Below are positions 3,379 to 18,939 of a stretch of DNA of 64,000 nucleotides, piece by piece (the stretch's first letter is position 1; each line of letters starts with the position of its first letter). The translations under genes and the position numbers were made by a program. The notes below the pieces were generated by a model that was not told the origin of the DNA, did no database searches, and was given only the letters and a program-made list of their open reading frames with translations. Source of the DNA: an uncultured Elusimicrobia bacterium (lineage in GTDB: Bacteria > Elusimicrobiota > Elusimicrobia > Elusimicrobiales > Elusimicrobiaceae); NCBI GenBank assembly GCA_947306425.1, contig CAMZGO010000001.1, forward strand, positions 62,001-126,000, read 5' to 3'.

Positions 3379-4810
3379 AATTTTTAAGGGCTTTTAGGGC
3401 CTCTTCCTCATCAGAAAAATGTATTTTGCCCGTGGGTAAAATTTGGTAATCTTCATGGCCTTTGCCGGCAATTAAAACTATATCCCCGGCTTGGGCCTGC
3501 GATATTGCTTTGTTTATCGCTTTACGCCTGTCAAGTTCCACCTCATAATTCTTATTTTCGCCGACACCGGCTAAAATATCTTTCAAAATATTTTGAGGGT
3601 CCTCGCGGCGCGGATTATCGTTGGTAATTATGACAAAATCACTGTTTTCTACCGTACAAGCACCCATTAAAGGGCGCTTGGTTGTATCACGTTCACCGCC
3701 GCAACCGAAAACAGTGATAATTTTACCTTTTTTGTAAGGTTTAACTGTATCAAAAGCACGCAGCAAAGCCTCTTGCGTATAAGCGAAATCTACAAAAACA
3801 TAAAAGGGTTGGCCTGCTTTTATCGCCTGCATACGCCCTGCCACCCCTTGCAAAATTTCAATACCTTTGAGGGATGTTTCCAAATCAATCCCGTAAATAC
3901 TTGCCGCCGCAATTGCCGCCAAAGCATTGTAAACATTGTGTGCACCAAGCAAATTTATTTTGGCATTTTGACCGTTTACTTTAAAAGTAACACCTTCTAA
4001 AGACGGACAAATATCAGTTGCCGCAAAATCTGCCTTACCCTTAATTGAATAAGTCAAAGTTTTAATTTTACCTTCAAGCATTTTATAAAGTTTTTGGCCG
4101 TATTCGTCGTCTATATTTATAATTGCTGTTTTGTTTTGCTTTGGGTTTTGCGGATTTATTAAAGAATCAAAAAGTTTATATTTCGCCTTAAAATAATTTT
4201 CAAAAGTATGGTGAAAATCCAAGTGGTCGCGCTGTAAATTGGTAAAAATTGCCGTATCAAAATTAACACCTTCTACACGCTTTAATTCCAAAGCGTGGGA
4301 AGAAACTTCCATAATGCAACTGTCCGCATTCTTATTTACAGCGGTTGCTAAAATATTTTGCAAAGTCAAAGCGGCGGGTGTGGTGTTTGGCGCTTTACTT
4401 AAAACCTCTCGGTTAATTCTATAATTTATCGTACCAAGAACGGCAGGGATTTTACCTGCATTAATTAAAATACTTTCAAGCAAATAAGAGATACTTGTCT
4501 TACCTTTAGTACCTGTTATAGCAAACATCTTTAATTTGTTTGAGGGATTATCATAAAATTTAAGTGCGGCAGCGGCCATGGCGGCCTCAATATCTTTTAC
4601 CAAAACAGCCTGCTTATAATTTAGTTTTTCTTGACTGATTACGGCACAAGCGCCGTTTTCCAAAGCGGCGGGTATGAATTTATGCCCGTCAACGGTATGC
4701 CCTTTAATCGCAAAAAACACAAAGCCTTTTTGCACTTTTTGTGAATCTTGCGTTAAGCCCAAAACTTCACAATCAAAATTTGCTGTTGGAAAAAGTTCTC
4801 TAAGTTTCAT
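3371..4810 (-). CDS. murE: UDP-N-acetylmuramoyl-tripeptide synthetase MurE, meso-DAP type
   Basis: Cytoplasmic Mur ligase adding the third amino acid to the peptidoglycan stem peptide. It is 479 residues long. The P-loop GTKGKTS lies at residues 100-106, NLQRDHLDFH marks the Mur ligase core, and KGHEDYQ is near the C-terminus. The amino-acid-binding motif reads DNPR (398-401); DNPR is the known determinant for meso-diaminopimelate rather than lysine, which fits a Gram-negative wall. A usually conserved DYAHTPD segment reads DFAYTQE, a mild departure. It lies upstream of and overlaps murD. The divergent DUF2400 gene begins only 10 bp away, so promoters must overlap the coding ends. Confidence 0.96.
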   Translation of the reverse strand: MKLRELFPTANFDCEVLGLTQDSQKVQKGFVFFAIKGHTVDGHKFIPAALENGACAVISQEKLNYKQAVLVKDIEAAMAAAALKFYDNPSNKLKMFAITGTKGKTSISYLLESILINAGKIPAVLGTINYRINREVLSKAPNTTPAALTLQNILATAVNKNADSCIMEVSSHALELKRVEGVNFDTAIFTNLQRDHLDFHHTFENYFKAKYKLFDSLINPQNPKQNKTAIINIDDEYGQKLYKMLEGKIKTLTYSIKGKADFAATDICPSLEGVTFKVNGQNAKINLLGAHNVYNALAAIAAASIYGIDLETSLKGIEILQGVAGRMQAIKAGQPFYVFVDFAYTQEALLRAFDTVKPYKKGKIITVFGCGGERDTTKRPLMGACTVENSDFVIITNDNPRREDPQNILKDILAGVGENKNYEVELDRRKAINKAISQAQAGDIVLIAGKGHEDYQILPTGKIHFSDEEEALKALKNYV

Positions 4811-4820
4811 AAAATATATT

Positions 4821-5603
4821 ATGCTTAAAAAATCCTTACTAGAAAAATTATATGCGAAATATAACCACTTATGCTATGTTTCGCCTGACCCTTTACAATT
4901 CTGCCGCCCTTATAAGTACAAAGAACAGCAGGAAATTGTTTGCCTTATTGCTGCTTCCTTTGCCTATGGTAATGTAAAGCAAATAATAAAGGCCGTTGAT
5001 AATATTTTACTTAATTTAGGGCCTAGACCGAAAGAGTTTCTTTTAAGCACTTCTAAACCGGAACTTAAAAAAATGTTTAAAAACTTTAAATACCGCTTTA
5101 CAACAGGGGCAGAAACGGCTGATTTTTTGTGGGCAATTTCCCAAGTTTTGAAAGAATACGGCAGTTTGGAAAATTTATTCTTAAAGTTTTACAAACCGAA
5201 TAAAGATTTTGTTTTTGCTCTTAAAAGTTTTGCCGCACATTTGAGAAGTTACGGCTGTATACAAACTTTGATACCGGACCCTAGCAAAAACAGCGCGCTA
5301 AAACGCTTGAATTTATTTTTACGTTGGTGTGTTAGGTGTGATGAAGTGGACCTTGGCTGTTGGCGCGGGGTAGATTGTGCCGATTTACTTATTCCTTTAG
5401 ATGTACACATGCACCGTGCGGCAAAAAGTTTGGGGCTTACAAAACGCAATCAGGCGGACTTAAAAACCGCACTTGAAATTTCCGCAAATCTTGCAAAAAT
5501 CAACCCTGCTGACCCGATAAAATATGATTTTTGCTTAACGCGCTTTGGCATCCGCCCCGACATGAGTGAAAAAGATTTAGAAGAAATGGCAAGGAAGTTG
5601 TAA
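4821..5603 (+). CDS. DUF2400 / TIGR02757 family protein
   Basis: A 260-residue protein of the DUF2400 (TIGR02757) family, whose biochemical role is not established. Typical features are the N-terminal PDPLQFCRPYK segment, FAYGNVKQI, the PLDVHMHR block and the C-terminal RFGIRPDM. The ATG at 4821 is preferred because the reading frame further upstream runs inside murE and does not resemble the family. The last 93 bp of this gene are copied at 6801-6893, and the last ~56 bp again at 8681-8736, which makes the gene the anchor of a local rearrangement. Confidence 0.85.
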   Translation: MLKKSLLEKLYAKYNHLCYVSPDPLQFCRPYKYKEQQEIVCLIAASFAYGNVKQIIKAVDNILLNLGPRPKEFLLSTSKPELKKMFKNFKYRFTTGAETADFLWAISQVLKEYGSLENLFLKFYKPNKDFVFALKSFAAHLRSYGCIQTLIPDPSKNSALKRLNLFLRWCVRCDEVDLGCWRGVDCADLLIPLDVHMHRAAKSLGLTKRNQADLKTALEISANLAKINPADPIKYDFCLTRFGIRPDMSEKDLEEMARKL

Positions 5604-5611
5604 CTCAACAA

Positions 5612-6760
5612 TCACATTTGTAAAAACAAATTATGTGCAATATATGCAAATGATGACAAAATTAAAATAGAACCAAAAATTACCAAATAGTATATCTTAA
5701 AACCTACTTTATTATAAAAATTATTAGTGGGTTTCTCTATAAAATGATATGTAATAATACCAAAACCAATTATTACCAAGTACAGTAAGATAATAAACAA
5801 AAGAGCATGATTAAAAACAAGAGGATTATTTAAGTCCACAAGATATACCGTCAAAAATATAATCAAGATATGAGTTAAAAATATGGAATAAGAATACTTC
5901 CCTAGCGCAACTGAAAAATTATTATCTAATAACCTCGATAAAAAACCTTTGTTAAGTAGGAAAACATACAATAACAGTAAATAGCATATGATAACTATGT
6001 TATCATTATCCCATTTGGCAAATGTCACTAGGTAAATACTATATAATAATAGAAAAATTTCCGCAAAACCGTATAGTAAAATGTCTTGATTATTTTGCTT
6101 CCTAATATTAGTCTTATTAAAGTAAGAATAAGTATAAAACAAGAATACACCTAATCCCATCCCCCCCACACCCCTTAATATGGGAATAGGGAAAACTTTG
6201 TACAACACAGTATAATGCAGGGAAGGTATATCTCCAGCATTAGCTAAAATGATAAAACAAAATAATACTATAATACCAAGCACAAAATTAGCAATTTTAT
6301 TTGAAAAGGATTTATATAAGTAAAAAATAAACAAAGAAGAAAAAAATAAAGCCGACACAAACCAAGAAACTCCGTCATTTAGATTTGTTAACCCTATTCC
6401 GTTTAAAAGAAATAAACTGTAAATCCTGTGGTAACAATCGCCTTCCGCAATCGGCATATGCCAATTATCCATACATATCATACATACTGTATAAAAAGCA
6501 ACCACAGGCCATAATCTAGCTAATCTTTTCTTTATATAAACAAAAGTATCTTGACTGATATCCAAGGTATAAGCAAAGAAAAATCCACTCAATATGAAGA
6601 AAAAATTTACTGCATAACCTGCAGCTCTTCTATGTAAATCTATGAAATCAAAGATCGGATTTGAATATACACTAGTAATAATAAAAAGATGACAAAAAAC
6701 TATAAGCAGCGCAAAAATAAAGCGTAAGCAATAGACACTTTTATATTGATATCTTTCCAT
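5612..6760 (-). CDS. Acyltransferase family 3 (OafA/YrhL-like) membrane protein
   Basis: A 382-residue integral membrane O-acyltransferase, probably acetylating a surface polysaccharide or lipid sugar. It starts RYQYKSVYCLRFIFALLIVF, has the early His of the family (FCHLF) and the diagnostic NFFFILSGFFFAY, followed by about nine further hydrophobic segments. No SGNH domain is present. The gene is flanked by a 93-bp direct repeat (3' end of the DUF2400 gene at 5511-5603 and 6801-6893). Its base composition is visibly more AT-rich than its neighbours, suggesting acquisition. A run of seven G (coding strand, 6161-6167) lies inside the reading frame. A TGATATAAT extended -10 lies just upstream of the start. 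Confidence 0.85.
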   Translation of the reverse strand: MERYQYKSVYCLRFIFALLIVFCHLFIITSVYSNPIFDFIDLHRRAAGYAVNFFFILSGFFFAYTLDISQDTFVYIKKRLARLWPVVAFYTVCMICMDNWHMPIAEGDCYHRIYSLFLLNGIGLTNLNDGVSWFVSALFFSSLFIFYLYKSFSNKIANFVLGIIVLFCFIILANAGDIPSLHYTVLYKVFPIPILRGVGGMGLGVFLFYTYSYFNKTNIRKQNNQDILLYGFAEIFLLLYSIYLVTFAKWDNDNIVIICYLLLLYVFLLNKGFLSRLLDNNFSVALGKYSYSIFLTHILIIFLTVYLVDLNNPLVFNHALLFIILLYLVIIGFGIITYHFIEKPTNNFYNKVGFKIYYLVIFGSILILSSFAYIAHNLFLQM

Positions 6761-6800
6761 ATAACAATTATATCAAAATTCAAAAACTCATAATACGACT

Positions 6801-6893
6801 AACCCGATAAAATATGATTTTTGCTTAACGCGCTTTGGCATCCGCCCAGATATGCGTGAAAAAGATTTAGAAGAAATGGCGCGGAAGTTGTAA
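6801..6893 (+). pseudogene. Copy 1 of the DUF2400 gene 3' end
   Basis: A 93-bp near-copy of 5511-5603, differing at about six positions by eye. It still encodes the last residues of the DUF2400 protein (KYDFCLTRFGIRPDM, then R in place of S, EKDLEEMARKL) and the stop codon, but has no start. With the intact gene it forms a direct repeat bracketing the acyltransferase gene. It ends 5 bp before the stop of the convergent pilin gene. Confidence 0.85.
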
Positions 6894-6898
6894 GGAAA

Positions 6899-7441
6899 CT
6901 AGCAACAATAACACCCGTAATCTTCATTGTCATCCGTAACATCAGGTATACCTAGTATTTCGGAGTATTTTTTACTTGGTGTATCAGAACATTCCCCCTG
7001 TGACAAAACAAATTTATAATTTTTTGTGATACAGAGACAAACATCTTCTTTAACATAATTCGCACTTGCTAACATTTTATCTGAAGACATTTGACCTCCT
7101 AAAAAAACAAAAAATTTTTCCTTAGATATATCTTCTACATCAAGACACCAACCTGTCCTTTGGTCAATACGACGACAACCATTGACTTCAGTATTAACTT
7201 CTGCGAGATAACCAATATAATTATTAGTTCCATTACATTGTTTAGCTCCAGTCTGCAACCTGCACATCTCTTCAATTTGCGCAGCAGCTTTAAGCTTAGT
7301 ATAAGCCTCGGCAAACTCTGCTTTTATTTTTGCCTTTTGATATTGCGGCATAGCAATAGCGGCAAGTATACCGATAATTAAAACTACTACTAATAACTCA
7401 AGCAAAGTAAAACCTTTGGTTGCGTTTTTTATCTTGTTCAT
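6899..7441 (-). CDS. Type IV pilin-like protein (PilE/pseudopilin family)
   Basis: A 180-residue prepilin with leader MNKIKNATKG, cleavage before FTLLELL, and the conserved core VVVLIIGILAAIAMPQYQKA. The mature domain is Cys-rich (about 11 Cys, including a C-terminal YGCYCC), unlike the other pilins here. RBS AGGAGA lies 6 bp before the ATG. Its leader RNA matches that of the 1543 pilin almost base for base, but its promoter has an ordinary 17-bp spacer instead of a T-run. It belongs to a tandemly duplicated DUF2400 tail-pilin-comEC unit. Confidence 0.9.
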   Translation of the reverse strand: MNKIKNATKGFTLLELLVVVLIIGILAAIAMPQYQKAKIKAEFAEAYTKLKAAAQIEEMCRLQTGAKQCNGTNNYIGYLAEVNTEVNGCRRIDQRTGWCLDVEDISKEKFFVFLGGQMSSDKMLASANYVKEDVCLCITKNYKFVLSQGECSDTPSKKYSEILGIPDVTDDNEDYGCYCC

Positions 7442-7479
7442 AAATTCTCCTAATTCGCTTGATAAAGCGTTTTTAAATA

Positions 7480-7508
7480 ATTTTACCCTAAAGTAAAAAG
7501 CCTGTCAA
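7480..7508 (-). promoter_or_regulatory. Pilin promoter with normal 17-bp mixed spacer
   Basis: On the minus strand TTGACA (7503-7508) and TAAAAT (7480-7485) are separated by exactly 17 bp of mixed sequence (GGCTTTTTACTTTAGGG). The sequence upstream of the -35 is recognisably related to that of the 8738-9220 pilin, so this is the duplicated promoter without the homopolymer. It is a natural comparator for the poly-T promoters. Confidence 0.75.
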
Positions 7509-7563
7509 GATCTTTGTTATAAAAACAAATGTAGTTCATTATGCATTAGGCAACAAATTGTAA

Positions 7564-8692
7564 TTAAAACGTTATTATAGTGTCATCAATTTCAGCAGCT
7601 TTTAAGGTACTTGCAGTAGTAATTTCTGGAGTTTGAAAAGATAAATTATTATTTGTGCTTAATTCTTTTTTACCGTCAATTAAAACCCAGCCGCTTTCTA
7701 CTGTAACACCGCAGTAATTTTGATTCGGAAATATTTGGGTAATTTGCGCTTTAGTGTTTCTCAAAAGCGGTTCTATTTCAGTTGGAATTTCGCCATAAGG
7801 CAAGTAAATATTTTTGATTTTCAAATTAAAATCTTTAAGCATATAAAAATAACTTCGCGATAGGGAATTTACAAATAAACAGTCAATTTCCTTAGTGCCG
7901 AGCGCAAGCAAAGCCTTCTTAGCAACACTGCCGCTAATGCTTGCACCAAGCATTTTAGTTTGATTATTTTCCCGCAAAATAACATTTAAATTGTATCGGC
8001 CTTTTAATACGGTAACTTCGCGCGGTTTAATAAAAATACCGCCGCTAAATACCAAAGCCGATAAGAAAAAAGCAACACAAAAAATTTTTAATTTCTTTTT
8101 AAACAATGGTAAATTAAGCAGGGAAAAAAGCAAAATATAATAAGCAATTATTGTTGTTGGTTTCAATGCCGGCATAGTTATATTTGAAAACGGCAAAGCG
8201 GCAAAAAAGTTTACTAAATACTCAAAACAAAAAAGCAAAAATTTAATAGTAAACAAAACCGGCCCAAAAATAAATTTAACAAAAGATGCAAGCCAAAGCA
8301 AAAACCCGCCGCCCATCAAAACCGCACTCAAAGGCACCAAGAGCAAATTGGATAAAACTGCGCTAAATGAAATTTTATAGAAGTAATTTGTAAACACAGG
8401 TAACAAAGCAAGCTGCGCACATAATGAAATAAAAAATAATTCCAAACACCATCTAGCTAACGGGTGAATTTTATAACTTAATTTAAAATTTGAAGTAAAC
8501 AAAATTATTGCGCAAGTTGCAAGAAAAGACATCTGAAATCCGGCTTCAAATAAACTTTGCGGATTTACAATTAAAATAAAGAAAGCGGCAAGTAATAATC
8601 CTTGCATTATTCCGCTTTTACGGCCCAAAATGAAACCCAAAATTCCGGCAACAGTCATCAAATATGCCCGCAGCAAAGGTGCATCCGCACCG
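7564..8692 (-). pseudogene. Truncated duplicate of comEC (C-terminal part)
   Basis: The region 7678-8692 appears identical by eye to 9458-10472 inside the intact comEC, at an offset of 1780 bp. An open frame of 370 residues starts at an internal Met (MLRAYLMTV, 8676) and lacks the N-terminal OB-like region and half of the competence membrane domain. The last ~25 codons differ from those of the full gene. At 8681-8692 the comEC sequence runs directly into the DUF2400 3' end. It is probably non-functional; whether a shortened membrane protein is made is unknown. Confidence 0.85.
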
Positions 8693-8736
8693 ACATGAGT
8701 GAAAAAGATTTAGAAGAAACGGCAAGGAAATTATAG
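8681..8736 (+). pseudogene. Copy 2 of the DUF2400 gene 3' end, fused to comEC
   Basis: The sequence from the shared block GCATCCGCACCG onward reads as the last residues of the DUF2400 protein (DMSEKDLEETARKL, stop TAG 8734-8736). The left side is comEC sequence on the other strand. The junction lies within a 12-bp block that matches 11/12 between DUF2400 (5548-5559) and comEC (10461-10472), which points to a microhomology-mediated tandem duplication. Confidence 0.85.
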
Positions 8737-8737
8737 T

Positions 8738-9220
8738 TTAATATCTATAAGTATTTTCTCCTATAGTTGCATTTTTCTTTCCCGTTTCCAATTTACATAA
8801 ACGATGAGATTTGTCATTAGAATCATTGCTTAATGTAGTGCATCTGCGGTCATTGATAGAGTTAAGTTTAATGTCATAAGACATAGTTACCCCAAAAATT
8901 TTTCTTTTACAATATATAAAAGCGGTTGAAATCTGGCACCTAGACCCGTCTTTTATCTCCATCTTATCATGCTGTACTAAATCACCTTGTAAGTCAATAT
9001 CTAGTCCCTCAAAAGAACCCCAAAACCTATCACTGACCATGTATAACCTATCCACGGCACTTTTGATTGTATGGGCATTTTCTTTTAAAGTCGCAAATTT
9101 TGCTTTTCCCGCTACCATTTGATATTGCGGCAAAGAAATAGCGGCAAGTATGCCGATAATTAAAACAACTACCAATAATTCAATTAAAGTAAAGCCCTTA
9201 ACGTTTTTTATTTTCTTCAT
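8738..9220 (-). CDS. Type IV pilin-like protein (PilE/pseudopilin family)
   Basis: A 160-residue prepilin: leader MKKIKNVKG, cleavage before FTLIELL, hydrophobic core VVVLIIGILAAISLPQYQ, then a variable domain with four Cys. RBS AGGAGG precedes the ATG. Its stop lies 1 bp from the stop of DUF2400 tail copy 2 on the opposite strand. It is the second pilin of the duplicated unit, yet its mature domain has little in common with the 6899-7441 pilin. Expression should depend on the T17-spaced promoter at 9269-9301. Confidence 0.9.
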   Translation of the reverse strand: MKKIKNVKGFTLIELLVVVLIIGILAAISLPQYQMVAGKAKFATLKENAHTIKSAVDRLYMVSDRFWGSFEGLDIDLQGDLVQHDKMEIKDGSRCQISTAFIYCKRKIFGVTMSYDIKLNSINDRRCTTLSNDSNDKSHRLCKLETGKKNATIGENTYRY

Positions 9221-9268
9221 AGATCCTCCTAAAATTACTTATACAGCATTTTTAATTAAAGATACTTA

Positions 9269-9301
9269 TATTGTAGAAAAAAAAAAAAAAAACGTTGTCA
9301 A
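9269..9301 (-). promoter_or_regulatory. Pilin promoter with T17 spacer (candidate phase-variable)
   Basis: On the minus strand TTGACA (9296-9301) is followed by ACG, seventeen T, C and TACAAT (9269-9274), a 21-bp spacer. The upstream block ACGACGATGGAC is shared with the 1460 promoter. The tract is one T longer than at 1469-1484 and two longer than at 18323-18337. Confidence 0.75.
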
Positions 9302-9343
9302 GTCCATCGTCGTAAAAATAAATATAGTTTATGATATGTAGAA

Positions 9344-11188
9344 TTAGAAATTTATAATATTACCGTCGGTTTTAATTGTTTTTAAATTGGCGGAAGAAGA
9401 AACTTTGTCGGCTTTAAAAGATAAATTATTATTCACTCTCGGCTCTTTTTTACCGCTAATTAAAACCCAGCCGCTTTCTACTGTAACACCGCAGTAATTT
9501 TGATTCGGAAATATTTGGGTAATTTGCGCTTTAGTGTTTCTCAAAAGCGGTTCTATTTCAGTTGGAATTTCGCCATAAGGCAAGTAAATATTTTTGATTT
9601 TCAAATTAAAATCTTTAAGCATATAAAAATAACTTCGCGATAGGGAATTTACAAATAAACAGTCAATTTCCTTAGTGCCGAGCGCAAGCAAAGCCTTCTT
9701 AGCAACACTGCCGCTAATGCTTGCACCAAGCATTTTAGTTTGATTATTTTCCCGCAAAATAACATTTAAATTGTATCGGCCTTTTAATACGGTAACTTCG
9801 CGCGGTTTAATAAAAATACCGCCGCTAAATACCAAAGCCGATAAGAAAAAAGCAACACAAAAAATTTTTAATTTCTTTTTAAACAATGGTAAATTAAGCA
9901 GGGAAAAAAGCAAAATATAATAAGCAATTATTGTTGTTGGTTTCAATGCCGGCATAGTTATATTTGAAAACGGCAAAGCGGCAAAAAAGTTTACTAAATA
10001 CTCAAAACAAAAAAGCAAAAATTTAATAGTAAACAAAACCGGCCCAAAAATAAATTTAACAAAAGATGCAAGCCAAAGCAAAAACCCGCCGCCCATCAAA
10101 ACCGCACTCAAAGGCACCAAGAGCAAATTGGATAAAACTGCGCTAAATGAAATTTTATAGAAGTAATTTGTAAACACAGGTAACAAAGCAAGCTGCGCAC
10201 ATAATGAAATAAAAAATAATTCCAAACACCATCTAGCTAACGGGTGAATTTTATAACTTAATTTAAAATTTGAAGTAAACAAAATTATTGCGCAAGTTGC
10301 AAGAAAAGACATCTGAAATCCGGCTTCAAATAAACTTTGCGGATTTACAATTAAAATAAAGAAAGCGGCAAGTAATAATCCTTGCATTATTCCGCTTTTA
10401 CGGCCCAAAATGAAACCCAAAATTCCGGCAACAGTCATCAAATATGCCCGCAGCAAAGGTGCATCCGCACCGGCAATTAAAGTATAAAGTAAAGCAGCGG
10501 TTAAAGCAATAAATGCAGTCCTTTTACGCCCGCCGAAAAATAAAGAACATAAAAAATAAACAATCAAAGTAACAAAACCGACATTCCCTCCGGATGCAAC
10601 AAGCAAGTGCATGGCACCGCTGTCTTGAAAAGCGGTGTATAAAGTATCAGGTATATCGCCCTTTTCACCAAGTGTAATACCGCTTAAAATAGCAGCGGAA
10701 CTAGAAGGTAAATTCTCCCGAAACACATTTAAAATGCTTGTACGGATTTGGGCAAGATAAAACCAAAGCCCTTTAGAATTTTCAACTTTTTCAATTTTAA
10801 CTACATTACCTTGCGTGAAAATATGTTTACGCGCAAGATATTTGCCCCATTCAAAAGAACCGTAATTTTCGCTGTTACCTGGAATAAAGAAATCGCCTTC
10901 AAAAGCAATAATTTGCCCGCGTTGCAATTCTACACAATCTTGGCAGGACAAATACACCTTACCCTTTTGTTCCTTACCGTTTAAAGTTAGAATATCAGCG
11001 TTAAAAAACTGCTTATTTGACTTTAAGCGCGGGTAAGAATTTATATAGGCGCTGACTTTAGCCCTTATCGGGAGTTTATAAAAAATATCATCTTGCTTTG
11101 GTTTTGGAACTTTCAAAAACAAGGAAAGAAAAAGAGTATAAAGTACAAATATCAGAAAAAAGGGCCTTTTGTAAAAAGACGGGTGCAT
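9344..11188 (-). CDS. comEC: ComEC/Rec2-family DNA-uptake channel protein
   Basis: Inner-membrane protein that passes transforming single-stranded DNA into the cytoplasm. It has 614 residues. Residues ~10-30 are a membrane segment, ~40-130 an OB-like exported region (DUF4131-type), and ~190-470 the polytopic competence domain (SGITLGEKGDIP, HLLVASGGNVGF, RAYLMTVAGILGFI). The C-terminal ~130 residues occupy the place of the metallo-beta-lactamase-like domain, but I see no HxHxDH ligand set, so that domain is degenerate or lost. The start overlaps the recR stop by 1 bp (TAATG). About 1 kb of this gene is duplicated at 7564-8692. Confidence 0.88.
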   Translation of the reverse strand: MHPSFYKRPFFLIFVLYTLFLSLFLKVPKPKQDDIFYKLPIRAKVSAYINSYPRLKSNKQFFNADILTLNGKEQKGKVYLSCQDCVELQRGQIIAFEGDFFIPGNSENYGSFEWGKYLARKHIFTQGNVVKIEKVENSKGLWFYLAQIRTSILNVFRENLPSSSAAILSGITLGEKGDIPDTLYTAFQDSGAMHLLVASGGNVGFVTLIVYFLCSLFFGGRKRTAFIALTAALLYTLIAGADAPLLRAYLMTVAGILGFILGRKSGIMQGLLLAAFFILIVNPQSLFEAGFQMSFLATCAIILFTSNFKLSYKIHPLARWCLELFFISLCAQLALLPVFTNYFYKISFSAVLSNLLLVPLSAVLMGGGFLLWLASFVKFIFGPVLFTIKFLLFCFEYLVNFFAALPFSNITMPALKPTTIIAYYILLFSLLNLPLFKKKLKIFCVAFFLSALVFSGGIFIKPREVTVLKGRYNLNVILRENNQTKMLGASISGSVAKKALLALGTKEIDCLFVNSLSRSYFYMLKDFNLKIKNIYLPYGEIPTEIEPLLRNTKAQITQIFPNQNYCGVTVESGWVLISGKKEPRVNNNLSFKADKVSSSANLKTIKTDGNIINF

Positions 11189-11781
11189 TATAGGTCCGTC
11201 CGCCCTTTAAGAGAATGAGTCAAAGTCATTTCATCAATATAATCAAGTTGTGCGCCAAGCGGCACACCATAACCAAGGCGCGAAATTTTACCAACCAGCC
11301 CGCGGAGTAAATCAGCCAGATATAAGGCAGTCATTTCGCCTTCACTGTCGGGGTTAGTGGCCAAGATGATTTCCTTAATTTCTATAGGGGAATTTTGCAC
11401 CCGTTCTAAAAGTTCGCGCACTTTTAAGTTGTCAATATTTTTACCTTCCAAAGGGGAAACAGCACCGTGCAAAACATGGTAAACACCTTTAAAAACTTTT
11501 GTTTTTTCAAGTGCTTCAATATCTTTTGCTTCTTGCACAACGCATAAAATTGATTTATCACGGCTTTTATCGGCACAAATAGGGCAGAGATCTGCTTCCG
11601 AATAATTAAAACATTCTGTACAATATTTAACATTTTTACGGGCTTCAAGTAAGGCCTCAATCAAGGCGGCAACTTCCGCCTCCGGCGCACGTAAATAATG
11701 CAAAGTAAAACGCTCCGCTTGGCGCGGACCTACGCCTTGTAACTTACGAAAACAGTTTTTTAAATTTTCAAGCGTTTTCAT
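11188..11781 (-). CDS. recR: Recombination mediator protein RecR
   Basis: Cytoplasmic RecFOR-pathway protein that helps load RecA at gapped DNA. It is 197 residues, the standard length. The N-terminal helix-hairpin-helix is LQGVGPRQAERFTLHYL. The C4 zinc finger uses C54, C57, C66 and C69. A Toprim domain follows (ILCVVQEAKDIEALEKT, ATNPDSEGEMTALYL), with the C-terminal GVPLGAQLDYIDEMTL. It sits between dnaX (14-bp overlap) and comEC (1-bp overlap). A dnaX-recR pair is common in bacteria. Confidence 0.97.
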   Translation of the reverse strand: MKTLENLKNCFRKLQGVGPRQAERFTLHYLRAPEAEVAALIEALLEARKNVKYCTECFNYSEADLCPICADKSRDKSILCVVQEAKDIEALEKTKVFKGVYHVLHGAVSPLEGKNIDNLKVRELLERVQNSPIEIKEIILATNPDSEGEMTALYLADLLRGLVGKISRLGYGVPLGAQLDYIDEMTLTHSLKGRTDL

Positions 11782-13486
11782 CTTTTGTGCTTATAATTTG
11801 GCCGTCAAAAATACTTAAAATATTTTGGGTTACCGCCCCTGCTTTGACCTTTTCTTTAGGGGAAAAATCCTGCATTGAAAAGGGTTCTTCTTTGCTTATA
11901 AGTTCTTCTTGTACTATAGGTTTTACAGGTTCGGTATTTTGCTTTAAAACATCAACGTATCTTGGATTTTGCGGTACGGATTCTTTTGCAGCTATATCAA
12001 ATTTAAAAGTGATTTTGCGTTTAAATAACTTCAGGGCAATACCTTCAATATCTTTTTTACGCCTATCGCAGGCTTCTTTGGAAAAGGAATCCTTAACCCC
12101 AAAAACCCAATTTTCAGGTGTAAGAAATTGTACTTTAGCCCCTTGTAAACTATCAGCCAAAAAAGGTGAATTTTCCGCCAAAGCATTTTTAAAAACAGAT
12201 ATCGCAGTTATCGGATTGAAAGGGGAAGCTTCTTCTTTCAAGGAAGTTTCTTGTTCCAATATTTTTGTTTCTTGCTTTACTTCTATTTTCTTTATTTCCC
12301 GGTTTGGTTTTGTTTCAATTTTTTCTTCTTGAATATTATTTGAAGGGGTATCATCAGAAGGCCCTCCGCCCTTTTCAAGTGCTTCAAGGCGGGAAATTAA
12401 ACTTTCAATATCAAGCGTTGACTGCATTAAAGTAAATAATCCGACTTCAGCCGCCAAAGCCGGGGTATCGGAATAACGAACTTCGTCATAAAGTTTTGAA
12501 AGTTTCCTTGTTATTGCGGCAACAAAACTTGGTGATGTCTCTTTAATGATATCTTCAGCACCTTCAAAGGGTGCTGCGCCCGAACCAAGTGTAAAATAAA
12601 ATATTTCGCCAAATGCGGTCTTTAGGTCCTTTAACAAAGAAATGGCATCAAAACCCTCTTTCTTAACCATTTCAAAGACCTGATGTAATTTTTGCTCATC
12701 TTTGCGCACTAAAGCAAAAGCGGTTTCTTTTATTACATCACAAGGCATAAGGCCAAGCATTTTGGAAATTAACTCTTCATCCACACGCCCGTTTGAGAAA
12801 GATAAAGCCCTGTCTAAAATAGTTAAAGCATCACGTAAAGCACCGCCGGCATTCTTAGCAATTTGTTTGGCGGCACCGTCGGTAAGTTCAAAATTTTCCG
12901 CACCGGCAAGGTCCAAAAGATGTGTTATTATTTCCTTTTCCTCAATAGGTTTAAACCTAAAAGTTTGGCAACGGGAAGTAATTGTTAAAGGTACTTTATT
13001 AAATTCAGTAGTAGCTAAAATAAAGACAACATGGCTTGGCGGTTCCTCTAATGTTTTAAGCAAAGCATTAAAAGAGGATTTGGAGAGCATATGTACTTCA
13101 TCCAAAATAAAAATTTTATATCTGTCACGCCCTGCCGCTAAACCTACGGAATCAATTATAACTTCCCTAATTTTGTCAACTTGTGTATTGCTTGCAGCAT
13201 CAAGTTCCAAGACGTCAAGGTCTGATGAGGCAGCAATCTCTCTGCATTGCGGGCATTCGCCGCAAGGTTCATCGGTAGGTCCGTGCTGGCAATTCAAGGC
13301 CTTAGCAAGCAAGCGGGCTGTTGTAGTTTTACCGCAGCCGCGCGGACCGTAAAACAAATAGGCAGGTGCAACGCGCCCGCTCTTTACGGCATTCATTAAA
13401 GTGGTTTCAATGCTTTCTTGCCCGACGACCTCTTTGAAGGTTTGCGGGCGGTATTTGTTGGCTAGGGAGATATAGGTCATATACAT
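11768..13486 (-). CDS. dnaX: DNA polymerase III subunit gamma/tau
   Basis: Clamp-loader ATPase of the replicative polymerase, 572 residues. Walker A is GPRGCGKTT (47-55). Four zinc-binding Cys (66, 75, 78, 81) form the usual insert. Walker B is ILDEVHML, and the SRC sensor lies in TITSRCQTFRF. A charged, low-complexity linker (about 375-425) leads to a C-terminal tau-like domain, so this is a full tau form. The start may be the third codon (MTYISLANKYRP at 13480), which matches the family better; neither start has a clear RBS. A 180-bp gap to the upstream pilin holds no gene that I can see. Confidence 0.95.
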   Translation of the reverse strand: MYMTYISLANKYRPQTFKEVVGQESIETTLMNAVKSGRVAPAYLFYGPRGCGKTTTARLLAKALNCQHGPTDEPCGECPQCREIAASSDLDVLELDAASNTQVDKIREVIIDSVGLAAGRDRYKIFILDEVHMLSKSSFNALLKTLEEPPSHVVFILATTEFNKVPLTITSRCQTFRFKPIEEKEIITHLLDLAGAENFELTDGAAKQIAKNAGGALRDALTILDRALSFSNGRVDEELISKMLGLMPCDVIKETAFALVRKDEQKLHQVFEMVKKEGFDAISLLKDLKTAFGEIFYFTLGSGAAPFEGAEDIIKETSPSFVAAITRKLSKLYDEVRYSDTPALAAEVGLFTLMQSTLDIESLISRLEALEKGGGPSDDTPSNNIQEEKIETKPNREIKKIEVKQETKILEQETSLKEEASPFNPITAISVFKNALAENSPFLADSLQGAKVQFLTPENWVFGVKDSFSKEACDRRKKDIEGIALKLFKRKITFKFDIAAKESVPQNPRYVDVLKQNTEPVKPIVQEELISKEEPFSMQDFSPKEKVKAGAVTQNILSIFDGQIISTKDENA

Positions 13487-13666
13487 ACATAATATAAATT
13501 TAAGCGCAATTTAGCAAATAGGGTGTTATGGTTTAACGAATTGTATTAATCAATATGGGCATTCTTACAAATTTAAGAGTTTAGCTCGCTACAGTTTTTA
13601 TTTTAATGCGCTCGTGAAATGTCTACAAAAATACTTATGGGTGTTGATATACGGTTTGGTTTTGTT

Positions 13667-14167
13667 TTACAAATGCCCTTGTTCATTTATTTTATCACAA
13701 TGCTTTTTTTCAATACTAGATATGTTTTCATTAGGAGAACAATGCAACATATTTTCTCTGTCTAAATATAAAGAATAACTATATTTGGGTAATTTATTGG
13801 CAAGAGCTTTATATCCAGAACTTTGTGAGTTACTCAGTTTCCCATCCGGAGAATATAGAAAAAATTTTCCCTTTACTCTTTTTGAATACCAACCGCTCTC
13901 AATAATTTCTCCAAAAATTTCCACATCTAATTTATCCATTTCGTCAACGTTAGCATACCTACCGTTAATTAAATAAAAAGAATCTTGGGCTTTAGCAATA
14001 GCATTCAAATTCACTACAGCTTCTGTTATACGTATTTTTTCCACCGCTAAACGATACTGCGGCAGGGCAATAGCGGCCAAGATACCTATAATAAGCACCA
14101 CAACTAAAAGTTCTAACAGGGTAAAACCTTTAGTGAATCTTTTTGTTTGCATTCTTTTGTCTTTCAT
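13667..14167 (-). CDS. Type IV pilin-like protein (PilE/pseudopilin family)
   Basis: A 166-residue prepilin. The ATG at 14167 is chosen because AAGGAGAAATT precedes it; the frame remains open upstream to 14284, but that part lies inside a structured RNA region. The leader MKDKRMQTKRFTKG is longer than in the sister proteins, then FTLLELL and VVVLIIGILAAIALPQYRLA. The variable domain has only two Cys, towards the C-terminus (LHCSPN, KKHCDK). No TTGACA/poly-T promoter is present; instead the gene follows the candidate structured RNA at 14205-14405. It is the only pilin in the window that is not tail-to-tail with another gene. Confidence 0.88.
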   Translation of the reverse strand: MKDKRMQTKRFTKGFTLLELLVVVLIIGILAAIALPQYRLAVEKIRITEAVVNLNAIAKAQDSFYLINGRYANVDEMDKLDVEIFGEIIESGWYSKRVKGKFFLYSPDGKLSNSQSSGYKALANKLPKYSYSLYLDRENMLHCSPNENISSIEKKHCDKINEQGHL

Positions 14168-14204
14168 AATTTCTCCTTTTCCGTTAATGGTAGGCGGGGC
14201 ATAA

Positions 14205-14405
14205 TTAAAAAACACAAACAAAAAGGCCGTCTTTTGTGGGACTACAATCGCACAAAAAACAGCCGCCCGCCCGTGTGTAAACACGGGCAGATGTCATAAA
14301 TAGTTTATGGCATATAACGACTGCTTTTGGTTTGTAGTCCTTTCCTCTCGGAAACGAGGCCTTACGGCCGCCAAAAACAGAAATTCTTACCGCCCTAAAG
14401 CGGCT
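14205..14405 (-). ncRNA. Candidate structured RNA upstream of a pilin gene
   Basis: On the minus strand a TATAAT (14412-14417) precedes about 200 nt dense in base-paired arms. A 9-bp stem GGACTACAA/TTGTAGTCC (plus coordinates 14331-14339 with 14238-14246) encloses an 8-bp hairpin with a four-base loop (14268-14287). A GGCC-GTAA-GGCC hairpin (14357-14368) can alternatively give its GGCCGT arm to ACGGCC at 14224-14229, immediately before a T-rich tract. It could be a free-standing small RNA (6S-like size and rod shape) or a leader with a terminator switch for the pilin at 14167. No known family was recognised. Confidence 0.45.
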
Positions 14406-14466
14406 TAAATTCATTATATCAAAAAAACACACTTATAAAAAGTTATAATAATAAAAAGGAGATTTT

Positions 14467-16194
14467 ATGAAAAAATATATTTTACCTCTATTTATAATTT
14501 GCGTTTTGCTAATGCCGGCACAAGCAAAACAAAATATCAAACAAAACCCCGTATTAAATGTTATGGAGCAGGAATTAAACCGCGAATTTAAACAGTTAAA
14601 AAAAGTAAAACCGCCTGTGTACTTTTTATCTTATCAAATAACGGAGCGCGATAATTTCTATTTAAGTGCAACACTTGGTACAATTAACTATGAAAAAATC
14701 ATAAAAGAGGCATATTTGGACACTGATGTCCGCGTTGGTACACCGGAACTTGATAATACCCACAAAATCAAACTTGTTGATGCAGACAAATTAAATAATT
14801 CATCTAATAAAAATCTTTTTTTAATCAAAGTTTCTTTAACTGATGAAAACGCATTAAAAAACGCACTTTGGCTTAATACAGACCTTGCCGCAAAAGCCGC
14901 ACAAGAACAATATCAAAAAGTCTTGAACAATAACAAAACCGCCTCAACAAGAAATGATACTTCGGCAGACTTTTCAAAAGCACCGAAAACACCTTCAAAA
15001 TATATCGCCGATATGCCGGAAATAACTATAAATATTCCCGAGCTTAAAACAGAAATGGAAAACCTTTCCGCTTTAATGAAAGGAAAAAAATTTATATTTT
15101 CCTCCGGTGTAGATTTTTATTTGGTACGGGAAACAAATTATTTTGTAAATTCCGAAGGCACAAAAATAAAAGAACCGCGTGTTTTAATTAGGCTTTCTTA
15201 CCAAATAAATTCCAGAAATAAAGACGGCATGCAACTTTCCCGCACTAATTCCTACGACGCTATAACTATGGCAGATTTACCAAGCCAAGAGAAAATAAAG
15301 CAAGATATTTTGAAATCTATTGAAGAACTTAAAGAATTGCAAAATGCACCAAGTGCGGATACTTTTCACGGCCCTGTTATTTTGAAAAACAGGGCGGCAG
15401 GGGTTTTCTTCCACGAAATTTTGGGGCACCGCGTTGAAGGCCACAGGCAAAAAGATGATGATTTTGGGCAAACATTTACCCAAAAAGTGGGCGAGCAAAT
15501 TGTTGCCCCAATCATTACAGTTTACGACAACCCGACAATGACACACTTTAAAGGTATTCCCCTCCGCGGGCATTATTTATATGATGATGAAGGCACACCA
15601 GCCCAAAAAGCGATGATGATTGAAAACGGCATTTTAAAAGGCTTTTTGATGGGGCGATCGCCGATAAAAAACTTCCCAAACTCTAATGGCCACGGGCGCA
15701 AAAGTTACGGAAGGAAAGTCGTTTCCCGCATGGGTGTAACTGTTGTTGAGGCAAAAAATCAAATACCTTACGAAGAACTTGTGCAAAAACTTAAGGCAGA
15801 AATCAAACGCCAAAATAAACCTTATGGTTTGATTATTGACGATATTTCCGGAGGTTTTACCAATATAGATACCTATTCCCCGCAAAGTTTCAAAGTGCAG
15901 CCTTTGCTTGTTTACAAAGTTTTCCCGGACGATAGACCAAATGAACTCATCCGCGGGGCTGATATTGTAGGCACACCTTTAACAAGTTTCAATAAAATTA
16001 TTGCTGCGGCAAACGATGATACTTTATTTAACGGGACTTGTGGGGCAGAATCGGGCTGGGTGCCGGTTTCAGCTATTGCACCTAGTTTGTTAATCAGCGA
16101 ACTTGAAGTGGAAAAGGTAAATAAAACCTATGATAATTTACCCATTTTACCGCCGCCAAGTGCGGAAAATAATTCCAAGCAGGAGGTTAAATAA
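14467..16194 (+). CDS. Exported TldD/PmbA-family metalloprotease
   Basis: A 575-residue TldD-like peptidase. The HExxxH zinc site is HEILGH (H316, E317, H321) within FFHEILGHRVEGHRQ, and the C-terminus has the family's GTCGAESGW and APSLLISELE. Unlike the cytoplasmic E. coli TldD, it starts with a clear signal peptide (MKKYILPLFIICVLLMPAQA), so it should act in the periplasm or outside. RBS AAAGGAG precedes the ATG. The next gene, 1 bp away, is a paralogue without the zinc motif; TldD-TldE works as an active/inactive heterodimer, so this pair probably does too. The substrate is unknown. Confidence 0.88.
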   Translation: MKKYILPLFIICVLLMPAQAKQNIKQNPVLNVMEQELNREFKQLKKVKPPVYFLSYQITERDNFYLSATLGTINYEKIIKEAYLDTDVRVGTPELDNTHKIKLVDADKLNNSSNKNLFLIKVSLTDENALKNALWLNTDLAAKAAQEQYQKVLNNNKTASTRNDTSADFSKAPKTPSKYIADMPEITINIPELKTEMENLSALMKGKKFIFSSGVDFYLVRETNYFVNSEGTKIKEPRVLIRLSYQINSRNKDGMQLSRTNSYDAITMADLPSQEKIKQDILKSIEELKELQNAPSADTFHGPVILKNRAAGVFFHEILGHRVEGHRQKDDDFGQTFTQKVGEQIVAPIITVYDNPTMTHFKGIPLRGHYLYDDEGTPAQKAMMIENGILKGFLMGRSPIKNFPNSNGHGRKSYGRKVVSRMGVTVVEAKNQIPYEELVQKLKAEIKRQNKPYGLIIDDISGGFTNIDTYSPQSFKVQPLLVYKVFPDDRPNELIRGADIVGTPLTSFNKIIAAANDDTLFNGTCGAESGWVPVSAIAPSLLISELEVEKVNKTYDNLPILPPPSAENNSKQEVK

Positions 16195-16195
16195 T

Positions 16196-17836
16196 ATGAA
16201 ACGATTTTTAACTTTTACTTTTATCTTTTCCTTTTTAATCTTGGGTGCAAAAGCAAACGACGCTGGTATAAAAACCGCTGCCGTTTTTGATGCTATGCAA
16301 AAAGAAATGGAACGCACTCTTTCCCTTTCAAAAACTGCACCAAAAATCCATTTTGCTGCTTTCCAAGTTAAAGATATTCAAAACCTTTCAATTATTGCCG
16401 CACGTGGAGGGCTCGTGCAAGAAATAAAAACAAATTGGGTTGACACTGATGTTTCTTTAAGAGTCGGCGATAAAAAAGAAGATAACAGTTTCTTTCAAGC
16501 ATATATTTTTTCGCAAGAAGAAAGGCAGGAAGGCGCCCTTTCCCCAGACGGCATACGCGCAGGGCTCTGGGCTGCAAGTGATAAAAGTTATAAAGTAGCA
16601 CTTGACATTTATTCACGCAAACAGGGCTATAAAAACAAAAAAAACACGGAAGAAGTTTATGATGATTTTTCCCCAATAACACCGGCGCAAGATATTATAC
16701 CTTATGAAAATTCAATTTTTCCTACGGAAGAATTAAAAGAAATTGCCCAAAAAACTTCCGCTGCAGGTGCCTTAAAAAAACTTGAAAAATTTAATACACA
16801 TGTTTCTGCAAAGGAAATAATTTCTTATTATTTATCAAGTGAAGGTGCAAAATTTACAAAGAAAAATATATATGTTCAAATAAGTTTTTATGCCAAAGCA
16901 AGAACAAAAACCGGGTTTGAGTTTGATGACACAAAAACCCTTTCATATGCCGCTTTTGAAGATATGCCTTCTCTTGAAGAATTTGAAAAAATTGCCCTAA
17001 ATTTTGCCGAACAAATATCTCTGTTTGTTGAAGCAAAAAAAGGGGAAGCCTTTATCGGACCAATTTGGCTTGAAGGAGAAGCAAGTGCACAAATGTTTGA
17101 AAGGACCTTCATAAATAATATACATAATACCCGCAAAATTACCTATGACGCAGGTGGCGGAAATTTTCAATATTTTTTGAGGGAATTTGCCTTGAAAGAA
17201 AATCTTAAAGTTTTGCCTGTCAATTTTGAAGTTATTGATGACCCTTTACAAAAGACCTTTAACGGTAAAAAAATGAGCGGTGCTTACAATATTGACGAAG
17301 AAGGTTCCCCAGCCCAAACTTTGTACTTAGTAAAAAACGGAATTTTGAAAGATTTACCCAAGACGCGTTCATTAATTAAAGGCCAAAGACAAACAAACGG
17401 CCATGCTTTTGTAAATTGGGGAGTACAATTATATGCCACGGCAAGGGCCCTCAACTTGTTTTTCTTCCCGCACGATACAACACCTAAAGAAGAATTTAAA
17501 CAGAAATTTATGGATTTTTGTAAAGCTGAAGGTTTGGAATATTGCTATAAAATAACCTCAAAAAATATTATTGAAGAAGGTGATATATTGGCAATAAAAA
17601 TTAATGCCGAAACAGGAGAGGAAACCCCTGTTTACGGCTTAAAAGCACCGGCATTAAATACGCGTACTTTGCGTGATATTAAATTTGCAGCAGACGATTT
17701 GACTTTGTATAATGGCATGGGAGGTACCTTAGGTAATTCTTTGGTAGCACCATCTGTGATTTTAAGTGAAGCAGAATTGACACCAAGCCAAACGGCACCG
17801 TCAGCAAAAATGCTGGTAACAAGGCCAAATATTTAA
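16196..17836 (+). CDS. Exported TldD/PmbA-like paralogue lacking the zinc motif
   Basis: A 546-residue protein related to its upstream neighbour. The ATG at 16196 follows AGGAGG (16181-16186) and begins a signal peptide (MKRFLTFTFIFSFLILGAKA). Where the active paralogue has HEILGH, this one has FERTFINNIH, so it should not bind catalytic zinc. The fold is otherwise kept: DEEGSPAQTLYLVKNGILK and GTLGNSLVAPSVILSEAEL match the partner's DDEGTPAQ and C-terminal APSLLISELE blocks. It is most likely the non-catalytic subunit of a secreted TldD/TldE-type complex. The stop is followed directly by the 5' flank of a MITE-like element. Confidence 0.82.
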   Translation: MKRFLTFTFIFSFLILGAKANDAGIKTAAVFDAMQKEMERTLSLSKTAPKIHFAAFQVKDIQNLSIIAARGGLVQEIKTNWVDTDVSLRVGDKKEDNSFFQAYIFSQEERQEGALSPDGIRAGLWAASDKSYKVALDIYSRKQGYKNKKNTEEVYDDFSPITPAQDIIPYENSIFPTEELKEIAQKTSAAGALKKLEKFNTHVSAKEIISYYLSSEGAKFTKKNIYVQISFYAKARTKTGFEFDDTKTLSYAAFEDMPSLEEFEKIALNFAEQISLFVEAKKGEAFIGPIWLEGEASAQMFERTFINNIHNTRKITYDAGGGNFQYFLREFALKENLKVLPVNFEVIDDPLQKTFNGKKMSGAYNIDEEGSPAQTLYLVKNGILKDLPKTRSLIKGQRQTNGHAFVNWGVQLYATARALNLFFFPHDTTPKEEFKQKFMDFCKAEGLEYCYKITSKNIIEEGDILAIKINAETGEETPVYGLKAPALNTRTLRDIKFAADDLTLYNGMGGTLGNSLVAPSVILSEAELTPSQTAPSAKMLVTRPNI

Positions 17837-17840
17837 AATC

Positions 17841-18187
17841 TTGGCCTAATGGTCAAAAATGTTGCTAATACCGTATCAAAAATGATGGAATGTTATTTTT
17901 TTGCTTTCTCTTTTATTTTCGCCACCCATTTTTTACGGTCTTTATCTATGTAAAAAATGGGCGGGAGAAAGCCGAGCAAATTTTATTTGCGAGGCAAGAG
18001 GGGGGTACCTTATTAGTAAACTTCAGAGACGTAAAATGTATTAATGGGCAACCCCCACCCCTAACCCCTCCGCCCTTTCTTATTTTTGCTAAGGCAAAAA
18101 TAAAACGGCAAAGGGGGAGGAAAATAAAAGAGCAACAATTTTAAGGAAAAGATACTTAATCAGCAACATTTTTGACCATTAGACCAA
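17841..18187. mobile_element. MITE-like element with 26-bp terminal inverted repeats
   Basis: The terminal inverted repeats 17841-17866 and 18162-18187 match at 25/26 positions (TTGGYCTAATGGTCAAAAAT, then GTTGCT). They are bracketed by AATC on both sides (17837-17840 and 18188-18191), consistent with a 4-bp target duplication. Inside are a 12-bp perfect hairpin (CCCATTTTTTAC/GTAAAAAATGGG, within 17925-17961), a 10-bp hairpin (TTATTTTTGC/GCAAAAATAA, within 18080-18103) and C-rich/G-rich arms pairing around the latter. It is 347 bp with no credible gene. It would need a transposase in trans; none is in the window. Confidence 0.6.
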
Positions 18188-18231
18188 AATCTTTCTTATT
18201 TTTCCACTAAACATAGTTTTTTAATCATATC

Positions 18232-18259
18232 CCGCCCGTGCGACAAAACGCACGGGTGG
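18232..18259. repeat. GC-rich hairpin before the pilin promoter
   Basis: An 8-bp perfect stem CCCGTGCG/CGCACGGG (18235-18242 with 18249-18256), extendable to 11 pairs with one G-T, around a six-base loop. There is no T-tract on either side, so it is not a normal intrinsic terminator. The arm resembles the CCCGCCCGTG hairpin inside the structured RNA at 14268-14287. It might be a transcript-end or protein-binding element; its function is unknown. Confidence 0.45.
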
Positions 18260-18313
18260 CGCTTATAGTGAATTTAAAACTTTATTTTTTACGTCAGGGC
18301 GCTTAAATACCTC

Positions 18314-18344
18314 TTGACAACGTTTTTTTTTTTTTTTCTACAAT
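18314..18344 (+). promoter_or_regulatory. Pilin promoter with T15 spacer (candidate phase-variable)
   Basis: TTGACA (18314-18319), then ACG, fifteen T, C and TACAAT (18339-18344): a 19-bp spacer. It is the shortest of the three homopolymer promoters and so closest to the 17-bp optimum, which predicts the highest basal activity of the three. The downstream leader ends in TTAGGAG before the ATG at 18397. Confidence 0.75.
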
Positions 18345-18396
18345 ATATACATAGGCAAAAAATAAAAGCCCTGTATAAATAAAATTAGGAGTATTT

Positions 18397-18939
18397 ATGG
18401 AAAAGAATAAAAAAGGTTTTACTTTAATTGAACTTTTGGTAGTTGTGTTAATTATCGGCATAATTGCCGCTGTTGCTTTGCCGCAGTATAAAATGGCAGT
18501 AGCAAAAAGCAGATATTCAACAATAATGAATCTTGCTAAATCTATTGCCCTCGCACAGGATAGATATTTTATGGTTCATGGCGCTTATGCAAATAGATTC
18601 GTTGATCTAGATATAGATATGCCAGCTGACTATATCTCTAATTCAAAGGAAAATGAATATTGTTATAATTGGGGCGGATGCAAAATAACAATGACAGGTG
18701 CTTTATATTGTTATGAAAGAACTCATAAAAATACATTAAATATATATTTTCACCACAGCATTGCTTTTAACACATTTGCAGGAAAGTTTTTTTGTGGAGC
18801 ACAAGGTACTAACGAAAATAATTTTTCTAACAAACTATGTAAACAGATAACCAATAATGCCAATATAGATAGAAATCATGATTATACAGTTTGTGATCAA
18901 AAATTTAATGGTAATTCCTATCTCTTTAGTTCTTACTAA
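18397..18939 (+). CDS. Type IV pilin-like protein (PilE/pseudopilin family)
   Basis: A 180-residue prepilin with the shortest leader of the set (MEKNKKG), cleavage before FTLIELL, and core VVVLIIGIIAAVALPQYKMA. The first ~80 bp of coding DNA after the leader are almost identical to the 1543 pilin gene, while the C-terminal domain (six Cys) is different. The 3' end overlaps the convergent CofE-like gene by 14 bp. The T15-spaced promoter drives it. Confidence 0.9.
   Translation: MEKNKKGFTLIELLVVVLIIGIIAAVALPQYKMAVAKSRYSTIMNLAKSIALAQDRYFMVHGAYANRFVDLDIDMPADYISNSKENEYCYNWGGCKITMTGALYCYERTHKNTLNIYFHHSIAFNTFAGKFFCGAQGTNENNFSNKLCKQITNNANIDRNHDYTVCDQKFNGNSYLFSSY

What the first reader, a model, noticed from the sequence alone, without database searches (positions are those of the whole stretch)
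5511..6893. Acyltransferase gene bracketed by 93-bp direct repeats
Seen directly: the last 93 bp of the DUF2400 gene (5511-5603) recur at 6801-6893 with about six differences, and between them is an AT-rich acyltransferase gene. Inference: the gene arrived by integration at the DUF2400 3' end and can be lost by recombination between the repeats without damaging DUF2400. Envelope acylation could thus vary within the population.
Basis: partly seen in the sequence, partly recalled or inferred. Interest (0 to 1): 0.6.

Follow-up and report, generated by a model that had tools for sequence, protein, structure and literature searches.

The report
Exchangeable gene slot holding three versions
Between two conserved genes of a gut bacterium, three versions of one exchangeable gene slot (an acyltransferase and two pilins) lie side by side, and the repeats around the acyltransferase look like scars from adding the other versions next to it.

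Summary
The repeat is real: 95 bp of the DUF2400 3' end (5509-5603) recurs at 6799-6893 (89/95 identical), and a third 55-bp copy lies at 8681-8735. The order is DUF2400 | acyltransferase | D' | pilin1 | truncated comEC' | D'' | pilin2 | comEC. Near relatives have one occupant in this slot: acyltransferase without repeats (G076), pilin (G073) or nothing (G083). The repeats are therefore not the acyltransferase's landing scar; they are the left ends of two pilin-comEC versions added beside it. comEC' equals comEC exactly over 1015 bp, but their last 150 bp differ as much as between species. Best reading: a slot like a minimal mobile element, its contents exchanged by transformation, here seen after additive, one-sided recombination. 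Context: G000 has about 100 dispersed pilin genes; 12 of 16 pilin slots compared are empty in at least one congener; 34 of 53 pilins examined have a 14-19 nt poly-T run upstream, mostly in the promoter spacer, suggesting phase-variable expression. Variation within a population could not be tested, and a closed relative (G068) showed no tail copies in 31 slots.

The parts
4821..5603 (+). DUF2400 gene (PF09674), left flank of the slot
   Evidence: E 5.9e-75
5509..5603 (+). D: repeat copy 1, true 3' end of DUF2400
5612..6760 (-). acyltransferase gene, PF01757, 382 aa, slot occupant A
   Evidence: homologue in the same slot of G076
6787..6798 (.). junction J1: acyltransferase upstream region meets D'
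   Evidence: homology to G076 ends at 6786, repeat starts at 6799
6799..6893 (+). D': repeat copy 2
   Evidence: 89 of 95 identical to D
6899..7441 (-). pilin1, prepilin-type (PF07963), slot occupant B
   Evidence: body best matches are two G073 pilins, one of them in this slot
7480..7508 (-). pilin1 promoter-like site TTGACA-17-TAAAAT, no poly-T run
   Evidence: consensus match only
7564..8695 (-). comEC', truncated copy of comEC with its own 3' tail (B)
   Evidence: 7678-8692 equals 9458-10472 exactly, 1015 bp; tail 111/149 to comEC
8681..8695 (.). junction J2: comEC' meets D'' at microhomology GCATCCGC
8681..8735 (+). D'': repeat copy 3
   Evidence: 51 of 55 identical to D
8738..9220 (-). 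pilin2, prepilin-type (PF07963), slot occupant C
9270..9301 (-). pilin2 promoter-like site TTGACA-20-TACAAT with 16 T in the spacer
   Evidence: consensus match only
9344..11188 (-). comEC, full length, right flank of the slot
   Evidence: PF03772 E 1e-56

Best explanation
The DUF2400/comEC interval is a one-gene exchange slot: conserved flanking genes and interchangeable contents (acyltransferase, pilin or nothing), moved between lineages by homologous recombination in the flanks, most likely after natural transformation. In this genome two further versions of the slot were added beside the resident one instead of replacing it. Each incoming fragment was anchored in comEC and carried only the last 55-95 bp of DUF2400 at its other end, too short for efficient recombination, so that end was joined elsewhere with little homology. 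This left the acyltransferase bracketed by D and D', and left the truncated comEC'. Shown: repeats, order, occupants in relatives, junctions, 1015-bp identity, diverged tails. Inferred: transformation as the route, one-sided recombination as the mechanism, order of events, and that the array is a passing state which the repeats can resolve.
For: Relatives show the occupants one at a time: acyltransferase alone in G076, pilin in G073, empty in G083. Three DUF2400 tails and two comEC tails. comEC body identical over 1015 bp while the tails agree at only 111/149, within the range between species (99 to 116 of 146-150); tail B is closer to G073 and G083 than to C. D' differs from D by 4 synonymous and 1 other codon, so it evolved inside a working gene. 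Microhomology at J2. Two more slots have a neighbour-tail copy next to a pilin stop: L090 27/27 and L102 score 29.5; 0 of 1726 mismatched pairs reached 18. comEC and a DprA-family gene are present. One-sided recombination of this kind is known in three transformable species with 3-10 bp microhomology (PMC3240628, Introduction read).
Against: No tail copies in 31 slots of the closed relative G068 nor in 4 congener slots. No strain-level data, so exchange within a species is not shown. J1 has no clear microhomology, and the parental sequence left of D' is unknown. DprA is widespread (11 of 14 control genomes), so competence is not proven. Published one-sided events usually delete about as much as they insert; here little was lost.
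Confidence: 0.62

Rival explanations
1. In-place tandem duplication of an existing DUF2400 tail-pilin-comEC unit by slippage or unequal crossing-over, followed by divergence or overwriting of pilins and tails.
For: J2 has the form of a tandem-duplication joint with microhomology, and the comEC bodies are identical over 1015 bp. L090 is a tandem of two 77% alike pilin units.
Against: Tails B and C and the two pilins are far apart while the adjacent 1015 bp are identical, so in-place divergence alone cannot explain it; an import is needed as well. The acyltransferase/pilin difference also needs an import.
Confidence: 0.2
2. Assembly artefact: a metagenome assembler placed versions of the slot from different strains one after another.
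For: The nearest relatives are metagenome assemblies, and versions that differ between relatives appear in tandem. Exact tandem repeats at two contig ends suggest assembly trouble elsewhere.
Against: Joining by overlap would need long exact overlaps, but J1 and J2 share only a few bases. A 1015-bp exact repeat is resolved inside one contig. Tail copies at L090 and L102 are of the same form at other places.
Confidence: 0.13
3. The acyltransferase gene inserted by itself at the DUF2400 3' end (attachment-site-like or transposon insertion), creating D and D' as its boundary repeats.
For: Gene 3' ends are common integration sites (general knowledge); the gene is AT-rich and patchily present.
Against: The homologous gene sits in the same slot of G076 with homologous upstream DNA and no repeat. 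No integrase or transposase lies between the repeats. D'' repeats the same tail beside pilin2, where there is no acyltransferase. The copies differ at 6 of 95 positions.
Confidence: 0.05

Closest known systems
Minimal mobile elements of Neisseria (Saunders and Snyder 2002; Snyder et al. 2007; definition seen in passages of PMC3082526; the two original papers not seen)
   Same: Two conserved genes with different whole-gene cassettes between them, no mobile-element genes; incorporation by homologous recombination is the proposed route.
   Different: Seen here between species, not strains; the cargo is mostly pilins; three versions are stacked in one genome with copies of the flanking gene tails.
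Homology-facilitated illegitimate recombination (PMC3240628, Introduction)
   Same: Homology at one end, microhomology join at the other end.
   Different: Here inferred from a product in an uncultured bacterium; the insertion is nearly additive, with little lost.
Phase-variable promoters with homopolymer runs (e.g. nspA poly-A in Neisseria, PMC6389960, title and start of abstract)
   Same: A homopolymer run at the promoter of a surface-protein gene.
   Different: Here poly-T in the spacer at dozens of pilin genes of one genome; switching itself is untested.

Membership tests
minimal mobile element | conserved flanking genes with different whole-gene cassettes between them | tested here: met
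   between species: acyltransferase, pilin or empty
minimal mobile element | no integrase, transposase or other mobile-element gene in the variable part | tested here: met
   ORFs of the slot are acyltransferase, two pilins and truncated comEC
minimal mobile element | cassettes differ between strains of one species | not testable with these tools
   one genome per species held
minimal mobile element | incorporation by homologous recombination in the flanks | tested here: inconclusive
   sharp change from identical comEC body to diverged tail fits; not observed directly
homology-facilitated illegitimate recombination | microhomology at the illegitimate junction | tested here: inconclusive
   J2: 8 bp exact, GCATCCGC; J1: none clear
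homology-facilitated illegitimate recombination | long homology at the other end, RecA-dependent, linear donor DNA | not testable with these tools
   comEC homology present; enzyme dependence needs experiments
attachment-site integrative element | own integrase and near-identical boundary repeats | tested here: not met
   no such gene between the repeats; repeats 6/95 different; G076 homologue has none
phase-variable promoter | homopolymer run in the spacer between the -35 and -10 boxes | tested here: met
   pilin2 and most of the 34 run-bearing pilins of 53; 53 pattern matches in G000, reversed control 0
phase-variable promoter | run length varies between cells and changes expression | not testable with these tools
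   no reads or expression data

The most novel reading that the evidence does not exclude
Elusimicrobiaceae keep a genome-wide surface-variation system: about a hundred one-gene slots with highly divergent pilins, many behind poly-T promoters that switch each pilin on and off by slippage, with slot contents exchanged between lineages by transformation (partly through pili and ComEC themselves). Arrays like this one are merging intermediates, and the acyltransferase is a rare alternative cargo.
Probability: 0.4. Interest if true: 0.82.

Novelty: new variant of a known kind. Interest (0 to 1): 0.6.

Why it matters
If right, one locus shows how an exchange slot changes hands: versions are first stacked, with short copies of the neighbour's tail as scars, and can later be resolved by recombination. 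The wider slot and promoter pattern would make uncultured gut Elusimicrobiota a case of massive pilin variation without mobile-element genes, testable from existing metagenome reads.

Tried and rejected
Attachment-site or transposon insertion: rejected, see rivals. Target-site duplication: too long and too diverged. tRNA in the window: none. Known RNA families in 4500-19000: none at gathering score. Search for the acyltransferase in genome contigs: 82 pattern matches, no confirmed relative, so no donor lineage was found. Tail copies in G068: none in 31 slots; in 4 congener slots: none. Of the repeats near pilins, L094 3208-3572/6006-6367 is the upstream and 5' part of a gene, not a 3' tail. 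Synteny at slot L089 9702-10945 could not be resolved: its flanks lie apart in both relatives. PADLOC, PHROGs, structure prediction and fold search were not used: the families were clear from Pfam.

Papers: the genome paper of Elusimicrobium minutum (recalled: Herlemann et al. 2009) is not held, so what it says about pilin numbers is unknown to me; large pilin numbers may already be in print. Library searches: Elusimicrobium + pilin (4 papers), E. minutum + genome + type IV, Elusimicrobiota + pili + genomes, any two of pilin genes / Elusimicrobia / pseudopilin / N-terminal methylation (41 papers, 15 listed), a pilin-expansion query, Elusimicrobi + phase variation. By title and start of abstract none of those listed describes this slot system or poly-T pilin promoters. 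Of them I read passages of two only.

Full report
OBSERVATION. The window is G000:C1:62001-126000 of a 1.44-Mb genome in 21 contigs. The repeat is as described: 5509-5603 against 6799-6893, 89 of 95 identical without gaps, both copies ending on the DUF2400 stop codon. A whole-genome search with the first copy and 11 bases beyond it gave three places: these two and 8681-8735. The gene between the first two is an intact 382-aa Acyl_transf_3 protein, GC 0.281 against 0.355 for the window.

ANATOMY. Left to right: MurE(-), DUF2400(+), acyltransferase(-), D', pilin1(-), comEC'(-), D'', pilin2(-), comEC(-), recR(-), dnaX(-). D' ends 5 bp before the stop end of pilin1 and D'' 2 bp before that of pilin2. 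comEC' is a truncated copy of comEC: 7678-8692 equals 9458-10472 exactly over 1015 bp. Its last 150 bp agree with those of comEC at only 111/149, within the range seen among all five tails (99 to 116 of 146-150); tail B is closer to G073 (116/147) and G083 (115/150) than to C. At J2, comEC and the DUF2400 tail share GCATCCGC. At J1 the acyltransferase upstream region, homologous to that of G076 up to 6786, meets D' at 6799.

RELATIVES. DUF2400 was found in 44 of 90 family genomes. The four nearest are 92-94% identical. G076 has DUF2400-acyltransferase-comEC with no repeat; G073 has DUF2400-pilin-comEC; G083 has DUF2400 directly against comEC; G085 has other genes downstream. The acyltransferase has relatives in 3 of 18 genus genomes, own included, and outside G000 only G076 has it at this place. 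The array thus holds, side by side, what relatives hold one at a time.

MECHANISM. The repeats belong to the pilin-comEC units, not to the acyltransferase. The simplest history is two additive events in which a fragment [DUF2400 tail - pilin - comEC] was anchored in comEC and joined at its tail end without long homology. The tail copies are short (95 and 55 bp; elsewhere about 46 and 27 bp), which I infer is why clean replacement failed. D' differs from D by 4 synonymous codons and one S-to-R, so it evolved inside a working gene before it came here. The 1015-bp identity says that the J2 event is recent or that the copies were homogenised. Resolution is possible in silico: D x D' deletes the acyltransferase and keeps DUF2400 full length. 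By inspection, comEC' x comEC would delete pilin2, and D x D'' would leave pilin2 alone.

WIDER PATTERN. pilin1 as query gives 107 matches at E<=10 in G000, most of them prepilin-type N-termini. I took 18 stretches plus the window (about 0.38 Mb, 27% of the genome), chosen because they are rich in pilins: 53 pilins, 47 slots with both flanks. For five regions (16 slots) I compared near congeners: 12 of 16 slots are empty (70 bp or less between the aligned flanks) in at least one congener; 3 hold other open reading frames or unresolved DNA; 1 could not be placed; in 3 of the 12 another congener has a pilin there. Of the places with 250 bp or more that fail to align, 15 of 20 against G076 and 14 of 20 against G073 have a pilin on the G000 side. 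Since the stretches were chosen for pilins, these shares are not genome-wide rates. Among 59 pilins held, the body of pilin1 matches only two others, both in G073: one in another slot (52%), one in this slot (42%), so pilin types seem to move between slots. Neighbour-tail copies like D' were found at two further slots, L090 (27/27) and L102 (score 29.5), plus a copy of a gene's 5' part at L094; no mismatched pair of 1726 reached 18. Against this, none was found in 31 slots of the one-contig genome G068 or in 4 congener slots.

PROMOTERS. 34 of 53 pilins have a run of 14-19 T upstream, against 7 of 255 other genes of the same stretches (some may share an upstream region with a pilin; not separated); 35 A/T runs of 12 or more exist there in all. 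In most cases the run lies between TTGAC(A) and a -10-like box. A pattern for this promoter gives 53 matches in G000 and 0 for the reversed control; 30 of 90 family genomes have at least one, up to 83 in G027. Of 20 such places fetched from nine other genomes, picked by hand from the listing, 15 are followed by a pilin by my motif, 3 more by the variant AFTLIEL (read from the output), and 2 by other sequence within the 120 bases shown. In the array, pilin2 has such a promoter (T16, spacer 20), while pilin1 has TTGACA-17-TAAAAT without a run. Slippage is the expected behaviour of such runs and was not observed.

COMPARISON. The slot works like a minimal mobile element (definition): two defining features are met, exchange between strains could not be tested. 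The stacking resembles homology-facilitated illegitimate recombination. Competence genes are reported in Endomicrobium of the same phylum (passages of PMC8809381); here comEC and a DprA-family gene are present, which does not prove competence.

VERDICT. Observation confirmed and extended; interpretation partly supported. A new variant of a known kind, with a wider pilin pattern that deserves its own study.

Noticed in passing
window 9270-9301, and upstream of the pilins at 1543 and 18397; G000 genome-wide: Poly-T runs of 14-19 between TTGACA and a -10-like box upstream of 34 of 53 pilins examined; 53 pattern matches in G000, reversed control 0; 30 of 90 family genomes have some.
   Followed up: partly
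G000 and all 90 family genomes: Very many dispersed prepilin-type genes: 107 matches to pilin1 in the 1.44-Mb G000; PF07963 in 90 of 90 family genomes, up to 257 first-look candidates in G020.
   Followed up: partly
window 17827-18201: A non-coding stretch upstream of the pilin at 18397 with imperfect 51-nt inverted ends, reminiscent of a small mobile repeat; not pursued.
   Followed up: no
L088 9500-9840 and 13892-14170: Intergenic stretches that match many places in four congeners, so they look like dispersed repeats.
   Followed up: no
L104 1-492 and L093 10040-10395 (ends of contigs C1 and C14): Exact tandem repeats of about 194 and 140 bp at two contig ends, possibly assembly-related.
   Followed up: no
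L089 9531-11523: The flanks of a two-pilin array lie far apart in both G073 and G076, so a rearrangement breakpoint falls at the array.
   Followed up: no
window 32706-33791: A second Acyl_transf_3 gene (PF01757) near glycosyltransferase-like genes.
   Followed up: no
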